Positions 31,261 through 64,000 of a stretch of DNA of 64,000 nucleotides are shown piece after piece. The translations under genes and the position numbers were made by a program. How positions within the stretch are numbered: position 1 is the first letter of the stretch; each line of letters starts with the position of its first letter. Origin of the DNA: Lunularia cruciata (taxonomy: Eukaryota; Streptophyta; Marchantiopsida; Lunulariales; Lunulariaceae); assembly GCA_948567375.1 (NCBI GenBank), contig OX419756.1, positions 50,978,333-51,042,332 of the forward strand, read 5' to 3'. The notes beneath the pieces are model-generated. The model worked only from the letters and a program-made list of their open reading frames with translations, searched no databases and was not told the DNA's origin.

Positions 31261-31294
31261 GATGAAGTTACTAAAATGACATCAAAAATAAAGA

Positions 31295-33140: not shown

Positions 33141-33369
33141 TTGATGGGGGCAAAGTGGAGACAACAATTCAACATGACAATCATATATGTGGAAAGTAAG
33201 AAGCAACTTGTAGATGCATTCACCCAAATGCCGATGGTAAACAATCTGGTGGTGGAAGTCAAGATAAACCATGAATTTTGGCTAAGGATTCTTGCTGCTA
33301 TGAAAATTAATCCACAGATTGTAGGTGCTCAATCAATCCAAAGGCGTCACCAACACCTAAGGACTAACC

Positions 33370-33675
33370 TTTTGTGATGACAGATGCCATAGATCTAAGA
33401 ACCACCATCCTAGAAAAATGTCATGATTCTACCTTGTAGGTCATGTTGGAGTGGACAAGACCTTAGATGCAATCAAATGACATTATTATTGGTCCAAAAT
33501 GAGCAACAATGTGATGAAATATGTTTGGAACTGCCTACTTTGTCAAAAAATAAAGCTTTTAATCAAGCTCTCACAATACTCTTTCAACTCTTCCACACTC
33601 TTACATAACATTGGGAACAAGTAAGCATGGATCAAGTTGGTGAATTGCCCAAGACCACCTAAGGGATTGACCGCA
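33370..33675 (+). pseudogene. Element C integrase, N-terminal fragment
   Basis: Remnant of the HHCC zinc domain (HVGVDKTLDAI and CLLCQK in shifting frames) leading to the catalytic-core start ...KGIDR. The reading frame is cut within the codons for I-D-R by element A and resumes at 42923 in IIVFVNQLKKMIHV. Confidence 0.65.
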
Positions 33676-33811
33676 TGTCACGCCATTTGTAGTTCCGCAT
33701 CTAGATGCTCGGACACTGGAGTTCCAGTGATGGTAGTTAGAGTTATTCTAGCTGTTTCTCAGGGACTACTTTCCGATGGTTAGATTTTGTGTTCGGGGTA
33801 CTGACTTCACG

Positions 33812-33822
33812 GTGGGGCCCAC
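33812..33822 (+). promoter_or_regulatory. Palindromic TCP-type site in the LTR
   Basis: GTGGGGCCCAC inside ACGGTGGGGCCCACCGT matches plant TCP binding consensus sites (GGNCCCAC and GTGGNCCC). It is conserved in the 3' LTR and in copy B. TCP binding is inferred. Confidence 0.5.
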
Positions 33823-33912
33823 CGTCACTTTGCACCGTTTGCACCGTCGAGTGTGCCGTCAGCGAGACCGTTAGGGTTTCAGGGCTAGCTCGAGTCCAGG
33901 GGGTATAGTTTC

Positions 33913-33938
33913 GAAGTGAGCTCCAGAGAGCTCACTTC
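33913..33938. repeat. Perfect stem-loop in the LTR (11 bp arms)
   Basis: GAAGTGAGCTC, loop CAGA, GAGCTCACTTC. Intact also at 42605-42630 and, in copy B, at 55655-55680. Conservation in three LTRs suggests a role in RNA structure or transcription. Confidence 0.75.
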
Positions 33939-34557
33939 TCTGATGTTGAGCCTTCGAGTTCCTGGCTATGGTGGACAGAGGCCGGCGAGCGTCACCTGGA
34001 TTCCCTATGCTTGAGTGGGTGTGGCTTGACTGTAATCAGTGCCCAATTGTTGGCAGTTTATAGAGTGACAGATCAAGTACTGATCTGAGTTGAGTTGAGT
34101 TGAGAGTGTTAAGCAATCTGATTACATCAGAGAAGTGAAGTCAGGGGGAAATTGGGTGCAGGAACGTTGAGTGTTGGTGGTATCTCCAAGCTCGGTGGAT
34201 CGTGGTAGCTCGATTCAGGTTCTGTGTTTCCCTAGTGTGCAGAAGCTCGTGTAGTTGATGCAAATTTGGCAGTTAGGCGGACGGTGTGCGGAAGTGCTGG
34301 CCAAATTTCAAGCAAAGAAGGAGCAATTTTCGAGCAGTGTTGTGATTTTGAGCTCAGGAGGTGAAGGCAGGACCAATTTGCTGCGAGTTGGGCTCAGAAA
34401 GTGAAATTGAAGGTGGAGTTGGAAAGCTCTTCTCATGAAATTGTGATTTGGAAAAACCCGTTTTGTCAATTTGGCTCGAGTGGAAAGTTAGCGAGGGATT
34501 TGGCGGACAGCTATCTTTAGGGTTTACGTCAGATTTACGTCAGATTTTGGGCCAGAA

Positions 34558-34660
34558 TTGGAGGAGTTTCGCTGTTTGGCCAGATTTGGAGAAGTTTCGC
34601 TAGTTTGGAGGAGTTTCGCAGATTTGGAGAAGTTTCGCCAATTTTGGAGGAGGTTCGAAG
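34558..34660 (+). repeat. Short tandem repeats TTTGGAGRAGTTTCGC
   Basis: About five imperfect copies of a unit of 20-25 bp in the leader of element A, ending in GGAGGAGGTTCGAAG. The right edge of the window ends in the matching part of copy B. Confidence 0.7.
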
Positions 34661-34852
34661 TGGCAACAAGAAAGGCCTCATTTGGCTGAATTTCGGCATT
34701 TAGAGGCTTCGAGGCATAGGGCTGTGGGCTATGAGAGGCTACAAAGGCCTAGAAGGGCCAGAAAGCCAGCTTGCTGGCGCGAGGCTAGCTAGTTTAGTGT
34801 AGATCTTGGTCATTGGTTGGCAAAATCTGCCTTTCTTGCTAGATTGTGCGCA

Positions 34853-34922
34853 ACAGGGTTTGACCCCTAGATCTCTTGTTCCTAGACTGGTGCCCTAGCC
34901 AACTGGTCCACCCTCACTTGTT
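34853..34922 (-). other. tRNA-like segment in the element A leader
   Basis: On the minus strand, TGGACCAGTTGGCTAGGGCACC resembles a tRNA D-arm/A box, and GGTCAAACCC about 40 bases on resembles a B box (GGTTCGANTCC). Copy B has the same on its opposite strand (63727-63781). It looks like the tRNA-related head of a plant SINE captured by the family. I could not fold a full cloverleaf, so it is not called a tRNA gene. Confidence 0.45.
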
Positions 34923-35414
34923 GTCATAGTGACTGTGCCACTGTTATCTATACACATGTAGCTTTGGCTAGGAGAGGCAGTTTGATCCCATTCTTGGTGA
35001 TCCTGGTAGCTTAGGACTTAGATACGAACTACTCTTATGTCAAATGCCAAATGGTGGCAGAGTTAGTCCCGTGTTGTGTTATGAGATGGAGGGTTTTCGT
35101 TTAGATTTCTTGTGATTGGATCCCCTCCATTCTCTGCTTCCTGTTTGTGCACCACGTTTGTGTGAGGTGCCTTGACTTTTGAGCGTTGGTGCTCTGGTGT
35201 GCTCTCGGTGGTGAGGCTGGAGTGATGACCAGTCAGACTACCTTTGTTTCTCTCCGGTGAGGCAGGAAGTGATTACCTGCAGACCGTGAGAGTGCGTGTT
35301 ATGATGGCAGGTTACAGGTTGCCCTTCCCCTAGTGTAGTTATCTCGGTTAGAGTTACATTAGTGGGTGGTGTCTAGTTGGTGTTGGCACTTGGTGGGGCA
35401 CTTGCAGTTGTGAC

Positions 35415-37133
35415 TTGCGGTTGCAGTTGGTGGTTCGGGTTTGCTGTTGCAGTTACGTGGTCACGACGGAGTTCTTTGGAGATTCCAGAGGAGTTAGCCC
35501 TGTAGTACGCAGTGGGTTTACTTGGAGTGGTGCTCGGTATCAGCCTGTATCTCAGGTCCCAGTGAGGGAGGAGATTGACTCTGAGTTGGAGTTTGACACA
35601 GGAGCTGATTCAATTGAGAGTGCACTTGGTGTGTCCGCACCGTTGTTGTGGGACATGGACGAGATTTATGGGGCCTCCAAAGGCCCTAGGCGTTACTCTG
35701 GTACAGTGGGTACTATTGAGTTGGATGATTTCATCTAGGAGTTCGATAGTTGGTGTGATCTGCAGCAGATGCGGAACCCGACTTTGTTCACACCCTTCAT
35801 GGCATGGAAAGGGTTGTTTCAGCACTTGGAGGGTCCATCGATGGACGACTACCATGAGTTCAGGAGAGCTCATTTGGAGGAGATTGAGTTATGGAGACAG
35901 TATTGGTCTCCACACTATGTCTCCATCACTTCAGGTTCGGTGGCCAGGAGTAGGTCGGCTGTATCTACGAGTTCTATCTCGAGTAGTGTTGGTGGAGCTA
36001 GTGGAGGTGCACTAGCTGGAGATAGTGCTACTACGAGTGGAGGTACCGTTGCAGGAGGTGGTGTGGTACCAGGGTTTAACCCCATGGTGGAGTTCTTCCT
36101 ATGTTTGAGGCAGAACTACTAGGGAGTGCGGACTGACAAGCTGAGGAGCTTGCAGGAGTTCCAGCGGAAGGCTGGAGAGAGCTTACGCGAGGCATACACT
36201 CGCATGAGGCGGCTGATCAGTTTCACTCAGGGAGTTACTGAGGCCCAGGCAGTCCAGTTTTGGTATGGGATACTGGACAGGGAGTTGCGACGTAGAGTTC
36301 GTGATGCTACGTTGTTGCAGGCTACTTCGCCCACTTTGGCAGTAGTCTTTGGTTTGGCTGAGCGTATTGAGCTCAACATGGTGGAGGAGAGAGTGGTGAC
36401 AGCTGGATTTGGTAGAGAGACTTCATCCACGGTTGTGACTTCTTCTAGAGTGTAGCAGAGTGCACCACGCCCAGTTGGTTTTTGAGGACAGGGTGGACAG
36501 CCCAGATCCTATGGAGCGAGTGGAGGGCCTAGTGGAGTTAGACCCTTACCCTCATTTTCGGGTCAGCAGCAGCCAGTGAGTGGTGGTGTTGCTTGTTGGA
36601 CTTGTGGTGGACCTCACCATAGGAGAGAGTGTACTCAGGGCAGCGGACCTGATACCTCTGGTGCATCACAGCCAGCACAGAGGCAGTGTGAGCACTGCCA
36701 TAGATTTGGTCATACTAGTGACCGGTGTTTTGACCTACACCCGGAGTTACGGAGTGGTAGGGCTGCTATGACAGGTAGTAGAGGAGCTCCAGTTCATGGA
36801 GGACGAGGTGGTAGAGGTGGTGGTAGAGGATCTACACCTAGTAGGGGTGCAGTACCTGCCCTTACTTCTGACACAGCTATGGCTACTCGGATTGAGCAGT
36901 TGGAGCAGAGATTGGCTAGTATGGCTATTGCTCATAGGAGATCAGATTCGGGTGCTGAGGCTTCCACCTCATATGCTGGTGATAGAGATGCTTTGGACTT
37001 CATGTGCGGAGCAGCACAGGTGGATGCATCTGGAGCAGTGACTAGGAGTGCAGTACGTGCTCCAGAGCCTAGAGGAGCATCAGTGGAGTTGGACCCACAG
37101 AGAGGAGAGGTTGGGAGACAGGTCAGACTTCCC
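35415..37133 (+). pseudogene. Element A gag with two zinc knuckles
   Basis: Nucleocapsid/capsid polyprotein in one frame from about 35415, interrupted by TAG at 35736, 36120 and 36453 and TGA at 36483. Capsid-like helical blocks are FTPFMAWKGLFQHLEG and LQEFQRKAGESLREAYTRM. A Ser/Gly-rich linker lies around 35950-36060. Two knuckles follow: CWTCGGPHHRREC (about 36595) and CEHCHRFGHTSDRC (about 36688). An Arg/Gly-rich stretch (36780-36850) may bind nucleic acid. At 35736 copy B has CAG where A has TAG, so the stop is recent. Confidence 0.85.
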
Positions 37134-37157
37134 TAGTCTTTCACGCTATCTGAGGCA

Positions 37158-38180
37158 TTGCAGATGACATCCATGGTTCCTAGACGTCCCAATGCAGGTG
37201 TGGTAGGTGGTGATGGAGTACCTGATGGAGTACCTGCTAGTCAGCCACCTGCTACTACACAGACTGAGTCTAGCATGATGTTGGGGGCGGCTCAGCTGAT
37301 TATGCGGCATCCTTTATTTTCAGCCAGTGACATGTTTACATTGGGAGTTGACCCAGCCCCAGTGTTCCGGTTGGCTGCCACGTTGTGTGAGAGTAGGGAT
37401 GGTGCAGTTCCTACTACTAGAGCAGAGGTGGTTGGTAGTGGAGCTGACTTGGTTGAGGAGCATGGGATCCGTTCAGCGACCAGTGGTTTATGGCAGGCAG
37501 CAGCGGCTAGATTGGAGGAGTTGCCAGCTAGACCGGCCTTTGAGAGAGCACGGTTTACACCTGGTGTTGTCCTATTGGATAACCAGAGGGGGATCTTTCG
37601 TTTGGTGGGACCTTCAGGGAAGGTCTATACACCACAGAGAGTCTTGTTAGACTCTGGTGCGCAGCCCCTTATGTTGGGGAAGGCTGTAGTTGTTGGTCTG
37701 GAGTTACGGAAGACCGATGTGGAGAGGTGTCCATTTCAGATCCAGACATCTCTAGGTGGTGGTTCGACACAGTACATCACACGTGGGGAGCTTGTTGTCC
37801 AGGTTCAGCCTGGTCATCCGACTGATAGCTCGGTGGTGAGAGCTCAGGCTATTGCGACGATAGCTGAGTCATATGATGTGCTAGTTGGGGGAGCAGTGTT
37901 ATACCCTATGGGTTTCAGTATTGACTATTGGGAGGAGACAACCTCTTTTAGACCTGGTTGGCAGTCTGGTGAGGGACGGGTATGTCGCCTACCAATACGC
38001 TTTAGTAGTGGCAGTCTTGGCTCACTACAGTCCGGGACCATGGCAGCATCAGTTTTGGCTTTCAGCGGTGTAGTTACTTGGCCTGGTGACTTGTTGGAGG
38101 GGATTGTTCCATCCACCTTGGATGTTCCATTGTGGAGTTCAGAGGAGGCATTGCAGCAGCATGCAGATCAGTTGGTGCAG
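37158..38180 (+). pseudogene. Element A aspartic protease region
   Basis: 341 open codons in the gag frame. The retropepsin active site is RVLLDSGAQPLMLGKA (about 37640-37690), followed by the flap-like region and YDVLVGGAVLYPMGFSIDYW (about 37872-37932; the G-A/V-L-Y-P-M block ends the protease). It would cleave the polyprotein. It ends at TAG 38181, which is CAG in copy B, and the frame continues into the methyltransferase. Confidence 0.85.
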
Positions 38181-38183
38181 TAG

Positions 38184-39581
38184 GCTTGGAGTGGAGCCTT
38201 CGTACCATCAAGGGATGAGTGTGAGGATGAGCCTCCAGAGGCGATTGCTTTGACACCTTTGGATACCACACTCATTGCTTGGCAGTATCCAGTAGAGGGG
38301 ATATGTCTATTAGAGTTGTTTGGTGGGATCAGCACCGGACTAGCTGCGGTGTTACAGGCGGGTATCCGAGTACAGAGGTACTTGTATGTAGAGAGAGATG
38401 AGACTGCTAGGCGAGTCTCTCTACATCATGTGGCACACTTGGCCTATCGGTATCCGGAGTTATTACCGATGTGAGCAGTCAGAGGTTACCAGAAGGCCTT
38501 ACCAGGAGACATTTCCTTATTGGGGGCGCATGACCTAGAGAGACATGGGCCTATTCACTTGGTGATTTCTGGATGGCCATGTTAGGGACATACACGTGCG
38601 GGCCGCGGTTTGGGTCTTCAGGATCCTCGTTCTGGTGTGTTTTGGGAGATGTTACGGATACTACGACATCTCCAGGTTCATCAGTCTGTTTCTCCAGCTT
38701 ACCTTTTGGAGAACGTTCCATTGATGGGTGATTCTCACACTAGAGTGGTGGCGAGTACACATTAGGTCCATTCTTGGATGGGACCTGCTGTATTGTTAGA
38801 TGCAGCCAGAGTGGGATCACGGGCTCATTGTCTTCGTCTTTGGTGGACAAACCTCTTACTCAGAGAGGTTCTATAGTGTGCTTATGATGGGATTCAGCGA
38901 CTGGACCACATTCTTGTTGATGATATCTTGGATGTTGGGCGTCAGTCTCAGACAGTGGTAGTGGCTGATAGGTCACCCATGGCAGTGGTGAACCTAGTTG
39001 GACAGCCTAGAGCTGCATTTCCCACACTCATGAGTTTCCCAGGCTCTCATGCTTTTCGAGAGGGAGGACCTGGACTTGTTTGGGACTCACAGTTACAGCA
39101 GTTGGTGGAGCCCAATGCTGATGAGAGAGAGCGGGCGATGGGTTTTCGCACCGGTATTACCGCTGTTCCAGCAGTGTCAGAGGCATCCAGGCGTCAGGTG
39201 TTAGGTCAGGCTATGGACCTGAACTGTTTGACCTGGATTGTGAGCCTTGGTTTGGCAGAGCAGCATAGGATGCACTTGATAGGCATCACCACTCGGACAC
39301 TTGTGAGCCCTGTGCCTATCGAGACGATTCAGGCACATGCTGGGGGCGATCGACCGAGTGGACATGGTATTCTTGGGACACATCTAGTAGCTACTAGGGA
39401 GAGTGGTCTACTTGGAGTCCATCCAGGTGAGCGTGGGCTACTTGGATTACACCCTTGGTCCACATGGGATGCAGCCAGAGGACATATGGAGCTTGCAGCC
39501 AGAGTGGAGGGAGTTTTTCACATAGAGGTTGGGACCTCTAGTGGTCGGGAGCATGACACCATTGCTCCCAAGGGCCCAGTG
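38184..39581 (+). pseudogene. Element A C5 cytosine DNA methyltransferase domain, between protease and RT
   Basis: AdoMet-dependent cytosine-5 DNA methyltransferase with motifs in canonical order. Motif I: LLELFGGISTGLAAVLQAGI (38307-38366, AdoMet binding); motif II region YVERDE. Motif IV: ISGWPC at 38565-38582 with the catalytic Cys; the next codon is TAG (CAA in copy B). Motif VI: LENVPLMGDS (ENV 38709-38717). Motif VIII-like GSRAHCLRLWWTNLL (about 38814-38858). Motifs IX-X: DERERAMGF and RRQVLGQAMDLNCLTWIVSL (39120-39250). The ENV...M, DAARV and RAH...WW-NL spacing is most like Dnmt3, but without the permutation seen in plant DRM enzymes. No recognition domain of known type was seen. Stops at 38472, 38583, 38763 and 38874 inactivate this copy. 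It shares the gag-pol frame, so it was probably made as part of the polyprotein. Confidence 0.88.
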
Positions 39582-39584
39582 TAG

Positions 39585-41429
39585 CAGCCAGTCAGTACGT
39601 CTTCCACTCCTACTACAGTTACAGAGGATACTTGGGAGCCAGATCTTGGACCCAAGCTTACTGGAGAGGAAACACGGAGGGTTTGGAGGTTCTTGAGGAG
39701 TCACACGAGTTGTTTTGCCTTCAGTATGAAGGATTTGGGTGCTCTGAAGGGACCTGGTATACGGATTGAGCTGACTAGCGACACACCTGTTTTCCGACGT
39801 CCTTATCGATATAGTGAGATGGAGAGGACATTGATTCAGAGCCGGAGTAGTGACCTTTTTGAGGCTGGTTTGGTGGAGATTTCACATGGAGAGTATGCAT
39901 CAGCGACAGTGATGCCAGCCAAGAAGGATATGCATGGCAACTTTATAGATAGGCGGATGTGTGGAGATTACCGTCCTATCAACCGACAGACCAGGGCTGA
40001 TCGGTATGCCATGCCTACACCGGAGGAGATTTTTGATGTGATTGGGCATGCAAAGGTCTTCAGTACTTTGGATCTTCGAGCGGGATATCATCAGTTGCCG
40101 ATCAGGGAGGAAGATAAGTCCAAGACAACATTTTGGGCTATTGATCCTCACGGCAAGGATGTGTTATATCAGTGGAGATTCTTACCATTTGGGTTGAAGA
40201 ATGCTCCTGCTGAGTTCCAGAGGGTCATGGATAGGATCCTAGCTGGACTGGATTTTGCTCGGTGCTATATTGATGACATTTTGGTGTATAGCACTACTGT
40301 GGAGGAGCATGAGAGACAGTTGTTGGAGGTGTTTGAGAGGTTGAGATCTCATGGACTCAAATTACATCTTGGGAAGTGTAGGTTCTTCCATGAGCAGGTT
40401 GAGTATTTGGGTCACACTATCTACCCCGGAGGACTTGGTGTTCAGCAGACCAAGGTGGAGGCTATTGCACGTATTCCTCGGCCTACGGATGTGAGCAGAG
40501 TGCGAGCATTCCTTGGGTTGGCGAACTTCTATTGCCGCTATGTTAGAGGATTTAGTGCCATTGCCAAGGCCTTGACGAAGCTGACCAAGCTTACACAGGA
40601 GTGGTGTTGGGGAGATGAGCAGGAGAGAGCTTTTATAGAGCTCAAGGAGAGGTTGACATCTGCTCCTATTTTGAGGAGACCGATTAGGGGACGACCATTT
40701 CAGGTTCATACTGATTGGAGTATGTTGGGGCTTGGAGCGGTGCTCACCCAACATGATGATGAGGAGGAGTTTGTGGTGGCCTATGCTAGTCGCTCCAACA
40801 ATTCAGCGGAGGCGAAGTATAGTTCATATGAGGGAGAGTGCTTGGCAGCAGTTTGGGCAGTAGCACATTTCCGATGTTACCTATTTGGTAACCCCTTCAC
40901 TCTCATCACTGATCATCAGCCGCTGAAGTGGTTGATGGAGTCCGACAAGCTTTCAGGGAAGCTTGCACGATGGGCTCTGATTTTACAGGAGTATGATTTC
41001 ACGGTTGTTCACAGACCTGGAGTGGTGAACCGTGATGCAGATTGGTTGAGTAGAAACCCATGTCCTAGCCAGCAGGATCAGACCGGAGCACGTTGGCATG
41101 GTGAGACAGATGAGGAGATGGTGCCAGGTTGGCATGCATCGGCCTTTCTGTGTATATTTGCAGAGACTTTGGTGGTATCTCTCTCGGCGCATACAGGAGG
41201 AGTTATTGAGGTCACAGATCCAGAGAGTGAAGATATTGGTACAGTTCAGCAAGACATTCATGATGATGTCTTAGTGATGGACTATCTTCGCACTGGTGTT
41301 GTGGGTGGCACAGTTGGGGCCAAGGAGAGAGACCGTGTTCTTCAGCGAGCCAGACGGTTCAGATTGGAGGGTAGGCACCTTTTGCGTGTATGGGAGGATG
41401 GTAGAGTGCGAGTAGTACCACTTCCATCA
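39585..41429 (+). CDS. Element A reverse transcriptase and RNase H, open
   Basis: The only long intact piece of element A: 615 codons without a stop, bounded by TAG at 39582 and TAG at 41430 (the first ATG is at 39693). RT blocks: SATVMPAKKDMHGNF, RMCGDYRPINRQTRAD, STLDLRAGYHQLPI, WRFLPFGLKNAPAEFQRVMD, and catalytic CYIDDILVYS (about 40264-40293). Then FLGLANFYCRYVRGFS, RNase H with QVHTDWSMLGLGAVL, ASRSNNSAEAKYSSYEGECL and LITDHQPLKWLM (D, E and D present), and HRPGVVNRDADWLSRNP. It copies element RNA to DNA and degrades the template. Part of a larger polyprotein, so not an independent gene. Confidence 0.88.
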
Positions 41430-41432
41430 TAG

Positions 41433-41659
41433 AGACCACAGTTGGTCCGTCATGCTCATGAGGAGCTAGGACATTTTGGAGTAAAGCGTACATATAGCTT
41501 ACTCTAGAGTCATTATTGGTGGCGCGGTATGCAAACCGAGGTATAGCAGTTTGTTGCCAGATGTGTGGTTTGTGACCGAGTTAGAGCATCATTCAATGCT
41601 CCTACGCCACAGTTACACCCATTACCTATCATGGGATTGGGTTACCGTTGGAGTTTGGA
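41433..41659 (+). pseudogene. Element A integrase remnant (zinc domain only)
   Basis: The HHCC zinc-binding domain is visible as HAHEELGHFGVKRTYSLL, SHYWWRGMQTEV and CVVCDRV, with TAGs near 41505 and 41544. After GYRWSLE the catalytic core is gone: the sequence jumps to the C-terminal part. In copy B the missing piece is 56609-57212 (604 bp), not a multiple of three, so the frame changes here. Confidence 0.8.
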
Positions 41660-42091
41660 GATACTTTACGCTATGCTACCATTCGAGGAGGAGGTTATAG
41701 ACCCTCGATCCGTCGATTTCATCCAGGCGACTATGTATATCTACAGCAGACAGCACCGACGACACTTGATGTTTCTACAGGCCACACTATCTTGAGAGTG
41801 CGCGAGGTTTTGCCATCTGGAGTCCTTGTGTTAGAAGGACATGATGGTGTTGTTTGGAAGGATCATGTGCGCAATTGTGCGCCATGCCACCTCCCAAACA
41901 TTGATGGTACTATGGACCCAAGCTTGGCACTTGTACGTGCAGGCTTGAGGTGTATGTTATGTGGCTCTTCTGGTGGAGCTGCTACTATGTTAGTGTGTGA
42001 TAGCTGTTCAAGAGGATGGCATATGGCATGTATGACTCCTCCCCTCACGGCGGTTCCTCAGGGAAAGTGGTTATGTCCTAGATGTACTTGA
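41648..42091 (+). pseudogene. Element A integrase C-terminal region with PHD finger
   Basis: Frame of 147 codons after the integrase deletion. FHPGDYVYLQQ and TILRVREVLPSGVLVLEGHD form an SH3-like integrase C-terminal fold. The last 47 residues are a PHD finger, C4HC3: RCMLCGSSGG (C-x2-C), LVCDSCSRGWHMAC (C-x2-C-x4-H-x2-C) and KWLCPRCT (C-x2-C), with the conserved Trp two residues before the last pair. PHD fingers read histone H3 tails (unmodified or methylated K4). Its place at the end of integrase is where chromoviruses carry a chromodomain, so targeting of insertion is a reasonable inference. Copy B retains all eight ligands. Confidence 0.9.
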
Positions 42092-42247
42092 CCTATAGCT
42101 AGTTCATTCTTTATATGGTATAGATTGCAGACAGGCGACTAACGATGGGGCTCCATAGCACCCGGCCTCCTGATCTTTGCCCATTAGAGGGTATACCATA
42201 TACTTAGAGTAGATGGCTATCTGGAGTTAGAGGGACCTAACCGCCAG

Positions 42248-42260
42248 CTAGGGGGGCGAT
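42248..42260 (+). other. Element A polypurine tract
   Basis: CTAGGGGGGCGAT directly before TGTGGCAC, i.e. before the 105 bp repeat and not before the LTR core. Copy B has the same arrangement (56008-56020 on the other strand). Confidence 0.65.
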
Positions 42261-42365
42261 TGTGGCACTTTAGATTCTATGTATGACTTATGTGTGAGTT
42301 GTGCTTTTATAGTGTATGATGTTGACAGCGATGTATGTTGTGTAGCGATGTATATACGCACGACA
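42261..42365 (+). repeat. 105 bp terminal repeat, first copy (R1)
   Basis: TGTGGCACTTTAGA...ACGCACGACA, followed by GC and then the LTR core. Repeats at 42818-42922 with one difference seen. The junction GACAGCTGTC is a perfect palindrome, like a joined LTR-LTR end. Confidence 0.85.
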
Positions 42366-42367
42366 GC

Positions 42368-42922
42368 TGTCACACCATTTGTAGTTCCGCATCTAGATGC
42401 TCGGACACTGGAGTTCCAGTGATGGTAGTTAGAGTTATTCTAGCTGTTCCTCAGGGACTACTTTCCGATGGTTAGATTTCGTGTTCGGGGTACTGACTTC
42501 ACGGTGGGGCCCACCGTCACTTTGCACCGTTTGCACCGTCGAGTGTGCCATCAGCGGGACCGTTAGGGTTTCAGGGCTAGCTCGAGTCCAGGGGGTATAG
42601 TTTCGAAGTGAGCTCCAGAGAGCTCACTTCTCTGATGTTGAGCCTTCGAGTTCCTGGCTATGGTGGACAGAGGCCGGCGAGCGTCACCTGGATTCTCTAT
42701 GCTTGAGTGGGTGTGGCTTGACTGTAATCAGTGCCCAATTGTTGGCAGTTTATAGAGTGACAGATCAAGTACTGATCTGAGTTGAGTTGAGTTGAGAGTG
42801 TTAAGCAATCTGATTATTGTGGCACTTTAGAGTCTATGTATGACTTATGTGTGAGTTGTGCTTTTATAGTGTATGATGTTGACAGCGATGTATGTTGTGT
42901 AGCGATGTATATACGCACGACA
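42368..42922 (+). repeat. Element A 3' LTR (core plus second 105 bp repeat)
   Basis: Core 42368-42816 matches 33676-34124; one base later the 105 bp repeat (R2, 42818-42922) closes the element at GCACGACA. Read as TGTCAC...CGACA the LTR is 555 bp, but the 5' LTR lacks R2. Confidence 0.8.
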
Positions 42923-42926
42923 CGCA

Positions 42927-43890
42927 TCATAGTCTTTGTCAACCAACTCAAAAAAATGATTCATGTGCATCCTATCACCAAGGATGCAACTACCTCACAA
43001 TTAGCTCAATTGTACTTAGATGCAATTTTTTCTCACCATGGCTTTTCTCAAGTGCTCATCATATATAGAGGTACTCAATTCACTAGTTTGTTTTAGAGAA
43101 GACTCTTTGGTTTCTTCAACCAAATTAGCCATGTCCATAGCTTACCATCCACATACTTATGAACAAATAGAGAGGGAAAATTGCACTATTGAGAACATGC
43201 TCTGGGCTTTACTTTAGATGAGAAAGAGAGGTGGGATACCTTACTCCCATTGGTGGAATTTTCTTACAACAATTCAATGAATGCCTCCACACAAGTAACA
43301 CTATTCTTCCTTAAAGCATCCTTTGACACCTTTGAGCTTGATGAAGATCCATCTAGTGGCTACCAAGGTTGATACTATCAACATTTTTGTTTTTAGAATC
43401 TAAAAGGGCATGGAGAATGCCAATCACATGTTACAAATCACCTTTAATCTATAGAATTAGTATGCAGATTCACACCGCCAACACATGGAGTTCAATGTTG
43501 GAAATCAAGTCTGGCTGTCAACCACCAATCTCAAGTTAGTTGGCCTTCATAAGCTTAGACCTTGTTTTATTAGACCTTTCTCTATTCTTCATCAAATTAG
43601 GGTAGTGGCCTACCACCTCAAGCTACCACCACACATAAAGATCCATCCAATATTTCATGTTTCCTTGCTACACAAATATGCACCATGACCACCCCACTTC
43701 TCTTCCATCCAAGAAAGTCAACCTTACCCAACCCTCATTGATGACACAAAGAAATATGAAGTCAAATGTATTCTCCAAAAATGCATCCATGGTACTCGCC
43801 ATCCACGTGTGGAATATCGTGTACATTGGAAAGGGTGCCCACTATATGAGGCAACATGGGAGCCAATTGCCAACTTGACTAACATATTGG
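42927..43890 (+). pseudogene. Element C integrase core remainder and chromodomain
   Basis: Continuation of C's integrase after element A: FVNQLKKMIHVHPITKDATT, YLDAIFSHHGFSQVLI and YRGTQFTSLF (second Asp region altered), AYHPHTYEQIERENCT (catalytic Glu region), then EKERWDTLLPLVEFSYNNSM. Further on, PPHIKIHPIFHVSLLHKYAP (about 43629-43688), and a chromodomain VEYRVHWKGCPLYEATWEP (about 43809-43868), the module that targets chromoviruses to heterochromatin. Stops and frameshifts throughout. Confidence 0.75.
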
Positions 43891-46132: not shown

Positions 46133-46183
46133 CCGGTGTTAGTTCAATCTTTTGAACAACTTCACAACAAGGATATGGCACTT

Positions 46184-46196
46184 AAGAGGGTGAAGG
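46184..46196 (+). other. Element C polypurine tract
   Basis: AAGAGGGTGAAGG just before the 3' LTR; aligned with AAAAGGAGAGAAG of element D. Confidence 0.7.
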
Positions 46197-55357: not shown

Positions 55358-55917
55358 TGTTGTGCATATATACATCGCTACACAACATACATTGCTGTCA
55401 ACATCATACACTATAGAAACACAACTCACACATAAGTCATACATAGACTCTAAAGTGCCACAATAATCAGATTGCTTAACACTCTCAACTCAACTCAACT
55501 CAACTCAGATCAGTACTTGATCTATCACTCTATAAACTGCCAACAACTGGGCACTAATTACAGTCAAGCCACACGCACTCAAGCATAGAGAATCCAAGTG
55601 ACGCTCGCTGGCCTCTGTCCACCATAACCAGGAACTTGAAGGCTTAACATCAGAGAAGTGAGCTCTCTGGAGCTCACTTCAAAACTATACCCCCTGGACT
55701 TGAGCTAGCACTGAAACCCTAACGGTCCCACTGACGGCACACTCGACGGTGCAAATGGTGCAAAGTGACGGTGGGCCCCACCGTGAAGTCAGTACCCTGA
55801 ACACAAAATCTAACCGTCGGAAAGTAGTCTTTGAGAAACTGCTAGAATAACTCTAACTACTATCACTGGAACTCCAGTGTCCGAGCATCTAGATGCGGAG
55901 CTACAAATGGCGTGACA
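55358..55917 (-). repeat. Element B 3' LTR (R2 plus core)
   Basis: 105 bp repeat R2 at 55358-55462, one base, then the core 55464-55917 beginning TGTCACGCC on the minus strand; conserved stem-loop at 55655-55680. Structure as in element A. Confidence 0.85.
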
Positions 55918-55919
55918 CC

Positions 55920-56007
55920 TGTCATGCGTATATACATCGCTGTCAACATCATACACTTTAGAAACACAACTCACACATAAGTCATACATAGACTCCAAAG
56001 TGCCACA
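55920..56007 (-). repeat. Element B terminal repeat R1 (88 bp)
   Basis: The second copy of the 105 bp repeat, 17 bp shorter, separated from the core by two bases (GACAGGTGTC junction) and preceded by the polypurine tract AGGGGGGTGAT (56008-56018). Confidence 0.85.
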
Positions 56008-56176
56008 ATCACCCCCCTAGCTGGCGGTTAGGTCCCTCTAACTCCAGATAGCCATCTACTCTAAGTATATGGTATACCCTCTAATGGGCAAAGATCAGGA
56101 GGCCGGGTGCTATGGAGCCCCATCGTTAGTCGCCTGTGTGCAATCTATACCATATAAAGAATGAACTAGCTATAGG

Positions 56177-56600
56177 TCAAGTACATCTAGGACATAACCA
56201 CTGTCCTTGAGGAACCACCGTGAGGGGAGAAGTCATACATGCCATATGCCATCCTCTCAAACAGCTATCACACACTAATATAGTAGCAGCTCCACCAGAA
56301 GAGCCACATAATATACACCTCAAGCCTGCACGTACAAGTGCCAAGCTTGGGTCCATAGTACCATCAATGTTTGGGAGGTGGCATGGCGCACAATTGCACA
56401 CATGATCCTTCCAAACAACACCATCACGTTGTTCTAACACAAGGACTCCAGATGGCAAAACCTCACGCACTCTCAAGATAGTGTGGCCTGTAGAAACATC
56501 AAGTGTCGTCGGTGCTGTCTGCTGTAGATATACATAATTGCCTGGATGAAATCAACGGATCGAGGATCTATAACCTCCTCCTCAAATGGTAGCATAGCGT
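56177..56600 (-). pseudogene. Element B integrase C-terminal region with PHD finger
   Basis: The PHD finger retains all eight zinc ligands: CILCGSSGG, LVCDSCLRGWHMAC and QWLCPRCT. Residue changes from copy A are few (for example P to S and K to Q). A frameshift lies between it and the integrase core near 56535-56582. Confidence 0.88.
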
Positions 56601-57440
56601 AAAGTATCTCTATGCTGAGCAATCGCCAAGTTCTCAAAGGCCATTGGCATCACTCTCCGAAAGATCTCTGCCCGCTGAGAACATGCGCTCATCCATACAT
56701 CAAGGTCATCCAAGTCCAAAACTAGAGTAGCATCTCGACAAATGGCTGTAGGTAAATCTGGATCTCGTCCATAGAGTAGAAAGTATGGAGAGAAGGATGC
56801 TAAGGAGGCTTGTTGGCTGAACCGATAGCCCATGGCCAACCAAGGTAATTGGAGATCCCAATCTCCCAAGTGGCCTCTCTGCAAACCATACTTTTGCAAT
56901 CCTCTCTTCATCATCTAAACCACCCTCTCTGCTAAGCCATCTGCCTTAGGGTGATCTCGGGATGTAGTACGATGATCAATCAAAGCCTTGTCACAGAAGA
57001 CCTGAAACTCCCCCAAGAACTCTATATCCTGATTAGTCAAAACCTTAGCTGGTGCACCAAAATGACTAAGAACTTGATCCAGGAACGAGTAAGCTGTCCC
57101 TTCACTAGACTTGTAAGGAAGTGCCACCAACTCAATCCACTTGGAGAAGTGCTCCACCATCACCTAAACATACCAATGATGTCTCACAATCAGCAATAAA
57201 GGTCCGGCGAAGTCCAAACTCCAACGGTAACCCAATCCCATGATAGGTAATGGGTGTAACTGTGGCGTAGGAGCATTGAATAATGCTCTAACTTGGTCAC
57301 AAACCACACATCTGGCAACAAACTGCTGTACCTCGGTCTGCATACCGTGCCACCAGTAATGACTCTAGAGTGAGCTATATGTATGCTTTACTCCAAATGT
57401 CCTAGCTCTTCATGAGCATGACGGACCAATTGTGGTCTTT
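56582..57440 (-). pseudogene. Element B integrase catalytic core and zinc domain
   Basis: Contains the DDE core missing from A: GYRWSLDFAGPLLL (first Asp), VMVEHFSKWIELVALP, then KVLTNQDIEFLGEF, where the second catalytic Asp (T-D-x-G in relatives) appears as Asn, and HPKADGLAERVV with the Glu, followed by a TAG (CAG expected). Then GDWDLQLPWLAMGYRFSQQ and PYFLLYGRDPDLP. It catalyses joining of element DNA to the target. Confidence 0.8.
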
Positions 57441-57525
57441 GTGATGGAAGTGGTACTACTTGCACTCTACTATCCTCCCAAACACGCAAAAGGTGCCTAC
57501 CCTCCAATCTGAACCGTCTGGCTTG

Positions 57526-59200
57526 CTAAAGAACACGGTCTCTCTCCTTGGCCCCAATTGTGCCACCCACAACACCAGTGCAAAGATAGTCAATCACTAA
57601 GACATCATCATGAATATCTTGCTGAACTGTACCAATATCTTCACTCTCTGGATCTGTGACCTCAATAATTCCTCTTGTATGCGCTGAGAGAGATACCATC
57701 AAAGCCTCTGCAAATATACACAGAAAGGCCGATGCATGCCAACCTGGCACCATCTCCTCATCTGTCTCACCATGCCAACATGCTCCGGTCTGATCCTGCT
57801 GGCTGGGACATGGGTTTCTACTCAACCCATTTGCATCACGGTTCACCACTCCAGGTCTGTGAACAACCGTGAAATCATACTCCTGTAAAATCAGATCCCA
57901 TTGTGCAAGCTTCCCTAAAAGCTTGTCGGACTCCATCAACCACTTCAGCGGCTGATGATCAGTGATGAGAGTGAAGGGGTTACCAAATAGGTAACATCGG
58001 AAATGTGCTACTGCCCAAACTGCTGCCAAGCACTCTCCCTCATATGAACTATACTTTGCCTCCGCTGAATTGTTGGAGCGACTAGCATAGGCCACCACAA
58101 ACTCATTCTCCTCATCATCATGTTGGATGAGCACCACTCCAAGCCCCAACATACTCCAATCAGTGTGAACCTGAAATGGTCATTCCTTGATCGGTCTCCT
58201 CAAAATAGGAGCATATGTCAACCTCTCCTTGAGCTCTACAAAAGCTCTCTCCTGCTCATCTCCCCAACACCACTCCTGTGTAAGCTTGGTCAGCTTTGTC
58301 AAGGCCTTGGCAATGGCACTGAATCCTCTAACATAGCGGCGATAAAAGTTTGCCAACCCAAGGAATGCTCACACTTTGCTCACATTCATAGGCCGAGGAA
58401 TACGTGCAATAGCCTCTACCTTGATCTGTTGAACACCAAGTCCTCCGGGGTAGATAGTGTGACCCAAATACTCAACCTGCTCATGGAAGAACCTACACTT
58501 CCCAAGATGTAATTTGATTCCATGAGATCTCAACCTCTCAAACACCTCCAACAACTGTCTCTCATGCTCCTCCATAGTAGTGCTATAAACCAAAATGTCA
58601 TCAATATAGCACCGAGCAAAATCCAATCCAGCTAGGATCCTATCCATGACCCTCTGGAACTCAGCAAGAGCGTTCTTTAACCCAAATGGTAAGAACCTCC
58701 ACTGATATAACACATCCTTGCCGTGAGGATCAATAGCCCAAAATGCTATCTTGGACTTATCCTCCTCCCTGATCGGCAACTGATGATATCCCGCTCAAAG
58801 ATCCAAAGTACTGAAGACCTTTGCATGCCCAATCGCATCAAAAATCTCCTCTGGTGTAGGCATGGCATACCGATCAGCCCTCGTCTATTGGTTGATAGGA
58901 CGGTAATCTCTACACATCCGTCTATCTGTATAGTTGCCATGCACATCCTTCTTGGCTGGCATCACTGTCGTTGATGCATACTCTCCATGTGAAATCTCCA
59001 CCAAACCAGCCTCAAAAAGGTTACTACTCTGGCTCTAAATCAATGTCCTCTCCATATCACTATATCGATAAGGACATCGGAAAACTGGTATGTCGCTAGT
59101 CAGCTCAATCCGTATACTAGGTCCTTTCAGAGCACCCAAATCCTTCATATTGAAGGCAAAACAACTCATGTGACTCCTCAAGAACCTCCAAACCCTCCGT
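57526..59200 (-). pseudogene. Element B reverse transcriptase and RNase H, interrupted
   Basis: RT: WRFLPFGLKNALAEFQRVMD and CYIDDILVYSTTMEEHERQL (about 58645-58560). RNase H: ASRSNNSAEAKYSSYEGECL and LITDHQPLKWLM (about 58095-57920). Breaks: TGA for CGA in DLRAGYH (about 58794), a stop/frame change near 58370-58150 that separates RT from RNase H, and TAG for CAG just after 57526. Confidence 0.85.
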
Positions 59201-59289
59201 CTTTCCTCTCCAGTAAGCTTGGGTCCAAGATCTGGCTCCCAAGTATCCTTTGTAACTATAGTAGGAGTGGAAGACGTACTGACTGGCTG

Positions 59290-60600
59290 CTACACTGGGC
59301 CCTTGGGAGCAATAGTGTCATGCTCTCGACCACTAGAGGTCCCAACCTTTGTGTGAAAAACTCCCTCCATTGTGGCTACAAGCTCCACACGTCCTCTAGC
59401 TGCATCCCATGTGGACCAAGGGTGTAATCCAAGTAGCCCACTCTCACCTGGATGGACTCCAAGTAGACCAATCTCCCTAGTAGCTATTGGATGTGTCCCA
59501 AGAATACCATGTCCACTCAGTCCATCGCCCCCAGCATGTGCCTCAATTGTCTCGATAGGCACATGGCTTACAAGTGTCCGAGTGGTGATGCCTATCAAGC
59601 GCATCCTACGCTGCTCTACTAAGCCAAGGCTCACAATCCAGGTCAAACAGTTCAGGTCCATAGCATGACCTAACACTTAACGCCTGTATGCCTCTGACAT
59701 TGCTAGAATAGCAGTAATACCGGTGCAAAAACCCATTGCCCGCTCTCTCTCATCAGCGTTGGGCTCCACCAATTGCTGTAACTGTGAGTCCCAAACAAGT
59801 CCAGGTCCTCCCTCTCGAAAAGCATGAGAGCCTGGGAAACTCATGAGTGTGGGAAATGCGGCTCTAGGCTGTCCAACTAGGTTCACCACTGCCATAGGTG
59901 ACCTATCAGCCACTACCACTATCTCAGACTGACGCCCAACATCCAAGATATCATCAACAAGGATGTGGTCAAGTCATTGAATCCCATCATAAGCATGCTG
60001 TAGAACCTCTCTGGGTAAGAGGTTCGTCCACCAAAGACAAAGACAATGAGCCCGTGATCCCACTCTGGCTGCATCTAACAATACAGCAGGTCCCATCCAA
60101 GAATGGACCTGATGTGTACTCGCCACCACTCTAGTGCGAGAATCACCTATCAAAGGAATGTACTCCAAAAGGTAAGCTGGAGAAACGGATTGATGAACCT
60201 GGAGATGTCATAATATCTGTAACATCTCCCAAAACACACCAAAACAAGGATCTTGAATACCCAATCCTCTACCAGCACGTGTATGTCCTTGACATGGCCA
60301 TCCAGAAATCACCAAGTGAATAGGCCCATGTCTCTCTAGGTCATGCGCCCCTAGTAAGGAAATGTCTCCTGGTAGGGCCTTCTGGTAACCCCTGACCACT
60401 GACATTGGTAATAACTCTGAATACCGATAGGCCAAGTGTGCCACATGATGTAGAGAAACTCGCCTAGCAATCTCATCTCTCTCTACATATAAGTACCTCT
60501 GTACTCATATACCCGCCTGTAACACCATAGCTAGTCCGGTGCTGATCCCACCAAACAACTCCAATAGGCATATCCCCTCTACTAGATATTGCCAAGCAAT
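59290..60600 (-). pseudogene. Element B C5 cytosine DNA methyltransferase domain
   Basis: Same domain and motif order as in A. Motif I: LLELFGGISTGLAMVLQAGI (60564-60505), followed by TGA where A has CGA. Motif IV: VISGWPCQGHTRAGRGLG (about 60314-60261), here with PCQ intact. Motif VI: LLEYIPLIGDS (about 60180-60145), where the N of ENV is Tyr. Motif VIII-like GSRAHCLCLWWTNLL. Motifs IX-X: DERERAMGF and VLGHAMDLNCLTWIVSLGL (about 59757-59610), with a TAA between them where A has CAG. Thus A keeps motif VI and B keeps motif IV, and both are inactive as they stand. Confidence 0.87.
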
Positions 60601-61740
60601 GAGTGTGGTATCCAGAGGTGTCAAAGCAATCGCCTCTGGAGGCTCATCCTCACACTCATCTCCTGATGGTACGAAGGGTCCACTCCAAGCCTGCTGCACC
60701 AACTGATCTGCATGTTGCTGCAATGCCTCCTCTGAACTCCACAATGGAACATCCAAGGTGGATGGAACAATCCCACTCGTACTCCAAAGCAGAGTCATCT
60801 CCTCTGGTACTGGAGTATCCTCTGCATGGGCATTCTCCTCCAACAAGTCACCAGGCCAAGTAACTGCACCATTGAAAGCTAAAACTGATGTTGCCATGGT
60901 CTTGGAATGTAGTGAGCCAAGATTGCCACTACTAAAGCGTACTGGTAGGTGACATACCCGTCCCTCACCAGACTGCCAACCAGGTCTATAAGAGGCTGTC
61001 TTCTCCCAATAGTCAATGTTGAAACCCATGGGGTATAACACTACTCCCCCAACTAGCACATCATATGACTTAGCTATCGTCGCAATAGCCTAAGCTCTCA
61101 CCACCGAGCTATCAGTCGGATGACCAGGCTGAACCTAGACAACAAGCTCTCCACGTGTGATGTACTGTGTCGAACCACCACCAAGAGATGTCTGGATCTG
61201 AAATGGACACCTCTCCACATTGGTCTTCCGTAACTCCAGACTGACAACTGCAGCCTTCCCCAACATAAGGGGCTGTGCACCAGAGTCTCACAAGACTCTC
61301 TGTGGTGTATAGACCTTCCCTGAAGGTCCCACCAAACAAAAAATCCCCCTCTGGTGATCCAATAGGACAACACCAGGTGTAAACCATGCTCTCTCAAAGG
61401 CCGGTCTAGCTGGCAACTCCTCCAGTCTAGCCGCTGCTGCCTGCCATAAACCACTGGTCGCTGAATGGATCCCATGCTCCTCAACCAAGTCAGCTCCACT
61501 ACCACTCACCTTTGCTCTAGTAGTAGGAGCTGCACCATCCCTACTCTCACAACGTGACAGCCAACCGGAATACTGGGGCTGGGTCAACTCCCAATGTAAA
61601 CATGTCATTGGCTGAAAACAAAGGATGCCGCATAATCAGCTGAGCCGCCCCCAACATCATGCTAGACTCAATCTGTGTAGTAGTAGGTGGCTGACTAGCA
61701 GGTAGTCCGTCATGTACTCCATCACCACCTACCACACCTA
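60601..61740 (-). pseudogene. Element B aspartic protease region
   Basis: DSGAQPLML active site at about 61295-61265, preceded by a TGA (TTA in A). Then ISDPDIS-like and DVLVGG...LYPMGF blocks in shifting frames; the post-protease part (61059-60601) is open into methyltransferase motif I. Confidence 0.78.
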
Positions 61741-62394
61741 CATTGGGACGTCTAGGAACCATGGCTGTTGTCTGCAATGCCTCAAATAGCATGAAAGACT
61801 GGGGAAGCTGACTTGTCTCTCAACCTCTCCTCTCTGTGGGTCCAACTCCACTGATGCTCCTCTAGGTTCTTGAGCACGCACTGCACTCCTAGTCACTGTT
61901 GCAGATGCATCCACCTGTGCTGCTCCGCACATGAAGTCCAAAGCATCTCTATCACTAGCATATGAGGTGGAAGCCTCAGCACCCAAATTTGATCTCCTCT
62001 GAGCAATAGCCATACTAGCCAATCTCTGCTCCAATTGCTCAATCCGAGTAGCCATAGTTGTGTTAGAAGTAAGGGCAGGTACTGCATCCCTACTAGGTGT
62101 AGATCCTCTACCACCACCACTACCACCTTGTCCTCTATGAATTGGAGCTCCTCTACTACCTGCCATAGCAGCCCTACCACTCCGTAACTTTAGGTGTAGG
62201 TCAAAACACCGGTCACTAGTGTGACCAAATCTGTGGCAATGCTCACATTGCCTCTGTGCTGGCTGTGATGCACCAGAGGTATCAGGTCCGCTGCCCTGAG
62301 TACACTCTCTCCTATGGTGAGGTCCACCACAAGTCCAACAAGCAACACCACCACTCACTGGCTGCTGTTGACTCAAAAATGAGGGTAAGGGTCT
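61741..62394 (-). pseudogene. Element B gag, C-terminal part with two zinc knuckles
   Basis: Knuckles CWTCGGPHHRREC (about 62340-62302) and CEHCHRFGHTSDRC (about 62247-62206), an Arg/Gly-rich stretch and the linker to protease. Open for over 200 codons. Confidence 0.85.
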
Positions 62395-62757
62395 ATGAGC
62401 CGGCATGTCTCTCACTCAGGATGAACCTCTGATGGCTATTATGGTAGCGCACCATGGACTAAGAAGGCAAGGAACCCGAACTTCATCATACTCCTCCAAG
62501 GCTAACACTCCAAGACTCAAGACATTGCTCACTAGAGAACTCAATGAGAGAGAGATAGTTGCAAATGAAAGGATGATGAGTACCTCCTCACCCCTTGTTT
62601 ATATACTTCTGAAATAGTTACGTACCAAAGTTACTAATTACCGTAGTAACTCAAGTTACTAGATTAAAAGTCAAGTAAAGTCAAAAAGTAGAAAGGAATA
62701 TCCATTCATATGGGCATATTCCCCTAAGCATGTGGTCTTATCTTGACCCAACCACTT
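62395..62757 (-). other. Foreign segment replacing part of gag in copy B
   Basis: About 360 bp that do not match copy A replace about 660 bp of A's gag (35880-36539). On the minus strand it has a TATA box, TATATAAAC (about 62598-62606), followed by CATTTGCAACTATCTCTC and ends near GGTGCGCTACCA, like an LTR promoter region. No target duplication was found. Confidence 0.55.
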
Positions 62758-63270
62758 CTCCAAATGAGCTCTCCTAAACTCATGGTAATCATCCATCGGC
62801 GGACCCTCCAGATGCTGAAATAACTCCTTCCATGCCGTGAAGGGTGTGAACAAAGTCGGGTTTTGCATCTGCTGCAGATCACACCAACTATTGAACTCCT
62901 GGATGAAGTCATCCAACTCAATGGTACCCACTGTACCAGAGTAACGCCTAGGGCCTTTGGAGGCCCCATAAATCTTGTCCATGTCCCACAACAACGGTGC
63001 GGACACACCAAGTGCACTCTCAACTGAATCAGCTCCTGTGTCGAACTCCAACTCAGAGTCAATCTCCTCCCTCACTGGGACTTGAGATACAGGTTGATAC
63101 CGAGCACCACTCCGAGTAAACCCACTACATACTGCAGGGCTAACTCCTCTGGAATCTCCAAAGAACTCCGTCGTGACAAAGTAACCACAACAGCAAACCC
63201 AAACCACCAACTGCAACCACAAGTCGCAACTGCAAGTACCCCACCAAGTGCCAACACCACCAAGCACCAC
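62758..63270 (-). pseudogene. Element B gag, N-terminal part
   Basis: Matches A's gag start but without the stop at 35736: DDFIQEFNSWCDLQQMQN, then FTPFTAWKELFQHLEG and PPMDDYHEFRRAHLEK at 62758, where the foreign segment begins. Confidence 0.82.
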
Positions 63271-64000
63271 CCACTAATGTAACTCTAACCGAGATAACTA
63301 CACTAGGGGAAAGGGCAACCTGTAAATTGCCATCATAACATGTACTCTCACGGTCTTCAAGTCATCACTTCCTGCCTCACCGGAGAGAAACAAAGGTAGT
63401 CTGACTGGTCATCACTCCAGCCTCACCACCGAGAGCACACCAGAGCACCAACGCTCAAAAGTCAGGGCACCTCACACAAACATGGTGCACAAACAGGAAG
63501 CATAGAATGGAGGGGATCCAATCACAAGAAATCTAAACAAAAACCCTCCATCTCATAACACAACACGGGATTGACTCTACCACCATTTGGCATTTGACAT
63601 AAGAGCAGTTCGTATCTAAGTCCTAAGCTACAAGGATCACCAAGAAGGGGATCAAACTGCCTCTCCTAGCCAAAGCTACATGTGTACAGATAATAGTGGC
63701 ACAGTCACTATGACAACAAGTGAGGGTGGACCAGTTGGCTAGGGCACCAGTCTAGGAACAAGAGATCTAGGGGTCAAACCCTGTTGCACACAATCTAGTA
63801 GGAAAGGCAGATTTTGCCAACCAGTGACTAAGATCTACTCTAAACTAGCTAGCATCACGCCAGCAAGCTGGCTTGCTGGCCCTTTTGGCCCTTCTAGGCC
63901 TTCGTAGCCTCTCATAGCCCACAGCCCTATGCCTTGAAACGCCAAAATTCAGCCAAATGAGGCCTTTCTTGTTGCTACTTTGAACCTCCTCCAAAATTGG
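63271..64000 (-). other. Element B 5' leader, cut by window edge
   Basis: Aligns with the leader of A (about 34640-35340). The tRNA-like segment is on the plus strand here at 63727-63781. The last bases reach the minisatellite region of the leader. Confidence 0.75.
63727..63781 (+). other. tRNA-like segment in the element B leader
   Basis: TGGACCAGTTGGCTAGGGC (A box-like, 63727 on) and GGTCAAACCCT (B box-like, 63771-63781), antisense to element B as in A. Spacing of about 44 bases suits an internal Pol III promoter. No complete cloverleaf could be drawn. Confidence 0.45.

What the first reader, a model, noticed from the sequence alone, without database searches (positions are those of the whole stretch)
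33676..42922. Gypsy retrotransposon family that carries its own cytosine DNA methyltransferase and a PHD finger
Seen: in one Gypsy polyprotein, in order, zinc-knuckle gag, DSGA protease, a C5 methyltransferase with motifs I, IV, VI, VIII-like, IX and X, YIDD RT, RNase H, HHCC integrase domain and a C4HC3 PHD finger. A second copy (55358-64000, minus) has the same order, so it is a family and not a chance fusion. Known: LTR elements that captured cytosine methyltransferases have, as I recall, been reported in dinoflagellates and a charophyte alga; I do not recall one with a PHD finger or in a land plant. Inference: the element might methylate its own or target DNA, to hide from or imitate host silencing, and use the PHD to choose insertion sites.
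Basis: partly seen in the sequence, partly recalled or inferred. Interest (0 to 1): 0.95.

Follow-up and report, generated by a model that had tools for sequence, protein, structure and literature searches.

The report
Jumping gene carrying a DNA methyltransferase
A common jumping gene, in what appears to be a non-flowering land plant, carries its own DNA-methylating enzyme and a histone-reading domain; such elements had been described from algae, and here a genomic parasite seems to own part of the machinery that hosts use to silence it.

Summary
Copy 1 is one insertion (33676-42922) with a 4-bp target duplication and a matching empty site. The methyltransferase is of the DNMT3 class by profile, fold and unrearranged motif order. 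In the window's own 566-Mb genome, 20 of 20 sampled methyltransferase copies carry the PHD, and 20 of 20 PHD copies picked without regard to the enzyme carry it upstream. Relatives lie in liverworts, Sphagnum and Closterium. Two corrections. It is not simply one polyprotein: gag-protease-methyltransferase ends at an in-frame TAG kept in 59 of 60 sampled copies (TAG-CAR-YYA in 54), then come RT-RNase H-integrase-PHD. And it is no ordinary LTR element: its repeats are split (A1...B1-A2-B2; 18 of 20 copies), as in DIRS elements. A Gypsy element with Dnmt3 and such repeats is published from Klebsormidium (PMC5890265), so this is a variant of a known kind. New, as far as my searches show: land plants, the PHD, the place before a conserved stop, and the depth of the lineage. 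What enzyme and PHD do is inferred.

The parts
33672..33675 (.). left target-site duplication CGCA
   Evidence: identical to 42923-42926. Elsewhere 14 of 17 copies with both ends found have an exact 4-bp duplication
33676..34124 (+). repeat A1 (449 bp), 5' end of the element, starts TGTCAC
   Evidence: 6 of 449 differences to A2. Elsewhere A1 was found in 17 of 20 5' pieces and a B in none
36594..36728 (+). two gag zinc knuckles
37644..37676 (+). protease active site LLDSGAQPLML
   Evidence: a protease-like motif precedes the methyltransferase in natural proteins of Marchantia, Sphagnum, Calypogeia and metagenomes
38184..39581 (+). DNMT3-class C5 methyltransferase, same frame as gag and RT, broken by 4 in-frame stops in this copy
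   Evidence: motifs I 38310, IV 38565, VI 38700, VIII 38814, X 39198
39582..39584 (+). conserved TAG between methyltransferase and RT, context GTG TAG CAG CCA
   Evidence: both window copies; 40 of 40 and 19 of 20 sampled copies
39585..41429 (+). reverse transcriptase and RNase H
   Evidence: RVT_1 9.3e-31, RT_RNaseH 1.2e-35
41433..41659 (+). remains of the integrase (zinc-binding part); about 600 bp of the core deleted at about 41659
   Evidence: by alignment to copy 2, which has H2C2 (57167-57364) and a weak rve match (56918-57163)
41951..42085 (+). C4HC3 PHD finger at the C-terminus of the integrase frame
   Evidence: (E 8.8e-12)
42250..42259 (+). purine-rich AGGGGGGCGA just before B1 (candidate plus-strand primer site)
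   Evidence: both copies; function inferred
42260..42365 (+). repeat B1 (106 bp)
42366..42367 (+). 2-nt spacer GC; B1|A2 forms the palindrome GACAGCTGTC
   Evidence: a 2-nt spacer in 18 of 18 copies in which B1 and A2 were found
42368..42816 (+). repeat A2 (449 bp)
42817..42922 (+). repeat B2 (106 bp), 3' end of the element, ends GACA
   Evidence: 1 of 106 differences to B1
42923..42926 (.). right target-site duplication CGCA
55358..64000 (-). copy 2, from its 3' end to about position 34640 of copy 1; 5' end outside the window
59293..60690 (-). methyltransferase of copy 2 (4 in-frame stops)
59290..59292 (-). shared TAG of copy 2
56180..56551 (-). integrase C-terminal part and PHD of copy 2
   Evidence: PHD 8e-10
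55464..55917 (-). A2 of copy 2, with a 5-bp insertion (B2 at 55358-55463; B1 shortened)

Best explanation
A multicopy Ty3/Gypsy-type retroelement family of a bryophyte-like land plant that owns a DNMT3-class cytosine methyltransferase and a PHD finger. SHOWN: order gag-protease-DNMT3, conserved in-frame TAG, RT-RNase H-integrase-PHD; split direct repeats A1...B1-A2-B2; TG...CA ends and 4-bp target duplications; catalytic motifs kept and purifying selection on the methyltransferase. INFERRED: the enzyme has been inherited with the RT since before the sampled relatives parted; the TAG (TAG-CAR-YYA, a leaky context known from tobamoviruses, recalled) is read through at a low rate, so that the methyltransferase is made in Gag-like amounts and RT-integrase-PHD in small amounts; reverse transcription yields a circular DNA whose B|A joint (GACA-nn-TGTC) is opened by the DDE integrase; the methyltransferase, packaged with Gag, methylates the new cDNA or circle, marking or protecting it before integration; the PHD, on the integrase tail, chooses chromatin by reading a histone H3 tail.
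Against: No activity, expression or methylome data. No RNA structure after the TAG (fold z +1.22). The first 135 RT codons of the same 11 copies give pN/pS 1.03 at pS 0.017, so constraint on the second frame is not shown there. Open methyltransferase frames are a minority: 11 of 40, in a sample whose second half was mostly picked for long frames. Not all relatives show a stop before RT: P0125 runs from methyltransferase into RT in one model, as do Marchantia and Closterium gene models, which may have introns. PHD is absent in 7 of 26 testable relatives.
Confidence: 0.6

Rival explanations
1. The methyltransferase acts mainly on the host genome in trans, or on the element's own inserted copies, damping or disguising them, rather than on free cDNA.
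For: PMC5890265 discusses host methylome effects and self-restraint (discussion read). Many copies lie in this genome.
Against: Its place in the gag-protease frame favours packaging; split-repeat (DIRS) elements, which make free cDNA, own other methyltransferases too (PMC5890265).
Confidence: 0.25
2. The enzyme is kept for nucleic-acid binding (chaperone, packaging) and catalysis is unimportant.
For: One retroelement Dnmt (SymbioLINE) did not methylate DNA in yeast (PMC5890265).
Against: Catalytic Cys in 65 of 68 proteins with the motif region matched; FGG, WPCQG and EN[VI]P in 11 of 11 open copies.
Confidence: 0.12
3. RT-integrase-PHD is made by re-initiation, splicing or a second promoter, not by readthrough of the TAG.
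For: Three relatives' second ORFs are predicted to start with MP close to the junction (P0057, P0058, P0060); no downstream RNA structure.
Against: In the window there is no ATG at the junction; RT follows in the frame of the TAG in 37 of 40 copies; TAG-CAR-YYA in 54 of 60.
Confidence: 0.25
4. Host methyltransferase and PHD genes landed beside or inside one old copy (chimera).
For: None found.
Against: 20 of 20 both ways; same order in natural proteins of Marchantia, Sphagnum, Calypogeia and metagenomes; the host DNMT3 exon lies elsewhere and lacks about 20 residues that the measured element enzymes have (spacing 64 versus 85-89).
Confidence: 0.01

Closest known systems
KnitGypsy-Dnmt3 of Klebsormidium nitens (PMC5890265, 2018)
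   Same: Gypsy element, unrearranged Dnmt3 enzyme in the coding region, repeat structure like DIRS (figure legend), purifying selection on the enzyme; two K. nitens RTs fall inside the same RT tree.
   Different: The main text holds no mention of a PHD (0 occurrences; the figures themselves were not seen), calls the enzyme part of the Pol ORF, and describes it as acquired in the K. nitens lineage. Here it lies before a conserved TAG, with a PHD, in land plants. Its enzyme sequence was not in hand.
SymbioDIRS-Dnmt3 of dinoflagellates (PMC5890265)
   Same: Retroelement with a Dnmt3; a DIRS element; enzyme active on CG.
   Different: DIRS elements use a tyrosine recombinase (recalled); here a DDE integrase, TG...CA ends and 4-bp duplications.
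Chromodomain Gypsy elements (chromoviruses; recalled)
   Same: Gypsy integrase with a C-terminal chromatin-reading domain.
   Different: PHD instead of chromodomain; methyltransferase; split repeats.

Membership tests
Ty3/Gypsy LTR retrotransposon | PR-RT-RNase H-integrase order with Gypsy-type RT and RNase H | tested here: met
   RT tree
Ty3/Gypsy LTR retrotransposon | Two full identical LTRs at the ends | tested here: not met
   split repeats A1...B1-A2-B2: Gypsy by domains, not by repeats
Ty3/Gypsy LTR retrotransposon | DDE integrase and short target duplication | tested here: met
   rve in copy 2 (26.6 bits, below its cut-off) and precomputed PF00665 in relatives; CGCA; exact 4 bp in 14 of 17 copies
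DIRS order | Split repeats | tested here: met
DIRS order | Tyrosine recombinase, no target duplication (recalled) | tested here: not met
   rve-type integrase and 4-bp duplications
DNMT3 class of cytosine methyltransferases | Closest by profile and fold to DNMT3; motifs I to X in unrearranged order | tested here: met
DRM class | Rearranged motif order | tested here: not met
   order I, IV, VI, VIII, X at 38310 to 39239
CMT or DNMT1 class | Closest match in that class | tested here: not met
   closest are DNMT3 chains; no CMT or DNMT1 chain among the 56 PDB sequences matched at E up to 1
KnitGypsy-Dnmt3 lineage | Common descent of both RT and enzyme with the K. nitens element | tested here: inconclusive
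   RTs in one tree; the K. nitens enzyme was not recovered
PHD finger | C4HC3 pattern and PF00628 above cut-off | tested here: met
   45.3 bits versus cut-off 24
UAG readthrough signal (TAG-CAR-YYA) | Measured readthrough | not testable with these tools
   sequence context only

The most novel reading that the evidence does not exclude
A very old streptophyte lineage of Gypsy elements carries a paired chromatin writer (DNMT3) and reader (PHD). The writer is made in Gag amounts because it lies before a conserved leaky UAG. The element replicates through a circular DNA whose abutted ends (GACA-nn-TGTC) are opened by a DDE integrase. The enzyme's task, shared convergently with DIRS elements, is to mark or shield that free circular DNA until the PHD-bearing integrase places it in chosen chromatin.
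Probability: 0.25. Interest if true: 0.92.

Novelty: new variant of a known kind. Interest (0 to 1): 0.74.

Why it matters
Retroelements that own a cytosine methyltransferase were described from one charophyte alga and from dinoflagellates (PMC5890265). Here such a family has many copies in what appears to be a bryophyte, with relatives in liverworts, Sphagnum and Closterium, so the capture looks old and long kept rather than a K. nitens oddity. Some copies look young (in two of 16 copies A1 and A2 differ at only 3 sites) and some have open, constrained enzyme frames, so the question why a transposon would methylate DNA becomes testable in bryophytes. The PHD, the conserved stop and the split repeats with a DDE integrase give three further testable steps.

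Tried and rejected
Pfam alone: DNA_methylase was below cut-off for the window copies, so profile, relatives and fold were used. Scans of viral contigs with P0001 and A2 confirmed no relative. Rfam and tRNA scans of the window: nothing. RNA fold after the TAG: no structure beyond chance. The K. nitens enzyme was not among the listed hits (both lists capped, 8000 candidates scored), so one capture versus two could not be settled. The careful methyltransferase tree did not finish; the quick one is used; the RT tree is quick too. Rows dropped: RT tree 103 rows of 122 proteins with an RT hit plus the window, short ones left out; methyltransferase tree 84 of 143. The AlphaFold model has mean pLDDT 64.3, so only the overall fold match is used; CMT and DNMT1 do not appear in its table, which proves nothing. 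Of three copies without a 4-bp duplication, two have extra repeat copies at an end (tandem or nested), so the end my script took may be the wrong one. Two of 20 copies show B1 without A2-B2; one of these has both ends and an exact duplication: either a one-repeat circle product or recombination between B1 and B2, not separable. The copy number was not measured: the genome searches cap what is scored. Considered and rejected: chance fusion; host gene insertion; ordinary LTR element; DIRS proper.

Full report
What was checked. The element at 33676-42922 is a true insertion. Its ends are TGTCAC and GACA, flanked by CGCA on both sides, and a related Gypsy copy in the same window (reverse of 48400-49100) shows the site without it. 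Copy 2 (55358-64000, minus) is 93-96% identical over the long matches and shares order and 3' structure. The listed domains are present; the integrase core is seen only in copy 2 and scores below Pfam's cut-off there. Both copies are dead: four stops each in the methyltransferase frame, and an integrase deletion in copy 1.

The family in its own genome. The window lies in a 565.8-Mb assembly; the eight contigs seen are 60-85 Mb long. A PF00145 search gave 123 matches (2161 candidates), a PHD search 150 (7345 candidates), the latter all at E 1.2e-26 or better and without a stop inside; both are lower bounds. Of the 123 places I read 48: 4 are host-type genes or fragments and 44 are the element. 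Forty of these 44 were compared, 20 from the upper part of the table and 20 mostly picked for long open frames. All 40 have a TAG between methyltransferase and RT, followed by CAG (my search expression required CAG, and all 40 fitted), then CCA 33, CTA 5, TCA 1, CAA 1; RT follows in the frame of that stop in 37 of 40. For the reverse test I took 20 of the first 25 rows of the PHD table, leaving out the window and four places already known to lie beside a methyltransferase: 20 of 20 have the methyltransferase upstream; 19 have TAG and one AAG at the junction; the next codon is CAG or CAA in 16 and TAG in 4. So TAG stands in 59 of 60 and TAG-CAR-YYA in 54 of 60. Frames of 1428 codons containing the methyltransferase (two places) and of 1037 codons containing the PHD (five places) recur in the tables.

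Repeat structure. In 20 copies, A1 was found in 17 of the 5' pieces and a B in none. In the 3' pieces, 18 of 20 have B1, 2 nt, A2 and B2; two have B1 only. The PHD was found in 20 of 20. Of 17 copies with both ends, 14 have an exact 4-bp duplication and none an exact 5-bp one. B1|A2 reads GACAGCTGTC in copy 1 and a purine tract precedes B1 in both window copies. A plain linear cDNA with equal LTRs would not give this arrangement; a circle opened at B|A would. That is inference, and the same repeat layout is in print for KnitGypsy-Dnmt3 (figure legend).

Selection and age. Methyltransferase: 33 of 40 copies without indel, 11 of 40 fully open, all 11 with FGG, WPCQG and EN[VI]P; pooled pN/pS 0.44, bootstrap 0.35-0.54. 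Between the two window copies dN/dS is 0.35 for the methyltransferase, 0.58 for RT-RNase H and 0.79-0.95 for gag, protease and integrase end with PHD. The first 135 RT codons of the same 11 copies give 1.03 at pS 0.017. A1 and A2 differ at 3 to 45 of about 449 sites in the 16 copies where both were found.

Relatives. Methyltransferase relatives are named from Calypogeia fissa, Marchantia polymorpha, M. paleacea, Riccia sorocarpa and three Sphagnum species; others are unnamed, many from metagenomes (only the 8000 candidates sharing most words were scored). In Riccia, neighbouring locus tags hold the enzyme and the RT-integrase; a Marchantia protein (P0025) holds methyltransferase parts and the PHD. 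ORF1 of several relatives ends at the corresponding place. In Closterium the enzyme is upstream of RT in the same protein model; in P0125 too. In four unnamed proteins (P0150, P0158, P0160, P0166) it lies after RNase H. PHD: present in 19 of 26 relatives that reach far enough, absent in five Closterium and two unnamed ones; the Closterium gene models end 10-29 residues after the module, so a missed exon is possible. The RT tree (quick) places the window element among liverwort elements, with two K. nitens RTs in the same tree; the methyltransferase tree (quick) agrees broadly; distances correlate at 0.868 over 15 rows, one of them joined only by equal contig length (P0030 with P0057), 0 of 2000 shuffles reaching it.

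Host. A gene like plant xyloglucan xylosyltransferases at the window's edge, a separate DNMT3-like gene, and an element nested among liverwort elements point to a bryophyte, perhaps a liverwort; this is inference and the name is not known to me.

Known or new. Of PMC5890265 I read the abstract, passages, the Klebsormidium section with its legend and the discussion; its figures and supplements were not seen. Searches of the held open-access library listed no report of such elements in land plants or of a PHD in a Gypsy integrase (other papers seen only as listings). Most subscription papers and all preprints are outside that library.

Mechanism. Structure and conservation are shown. Stop-codon readthrough is likely from context and conservation. 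A circular intermediate is likely from the repeat layout. Methylation of the element's own new DNA is plausible by analogy to the published retroelement enzyme. PHD targeting is plausible by analogy to chromodomain integrases (recalled). The PHD's best matches among solved structures include CHD4, PHF12, KMT2D, DPF3, KDM5 and PHF21A fingers; from memory these mostly read H3 N-terminal tails.

Noticed in passing
window 31285-33675 and 42923-43438; 48225-51150 (inverted): A second Gypsy-like family, into one copy of which copy 1 inserted; the inverted copy gives the empty site.
   Followed up: partly
window 2-964 (-): Open frame of the GT34 family, like plant xyloglucan 6-xylosyltransferases (PDB match 9.2e-54).
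   Followed up: partly
window 21306-21516: Perfect 105-bp tandem duplication.
   Followed up: no
window 25443-26105, 46181-47723, 52035-52885: Dispersed repeats with internal units of about 155 bp, perhaps LTRs of further elements.
   Followed up: no
L001 (G000:C7:31989837-31990154): Host DNMT3-like exon behind a cysteine-containing stretch, a gene class absent from flowering plants (recalled); L004 looks like a decayed relative.
   Followed up: partly
proteins P0150, P0158, P0160, P0166: Gypsy proteins of unnamed hosts with the methyltransferase after RNase H instead of before RT: a second placement of the same enzyme family.
   Followed up: partly
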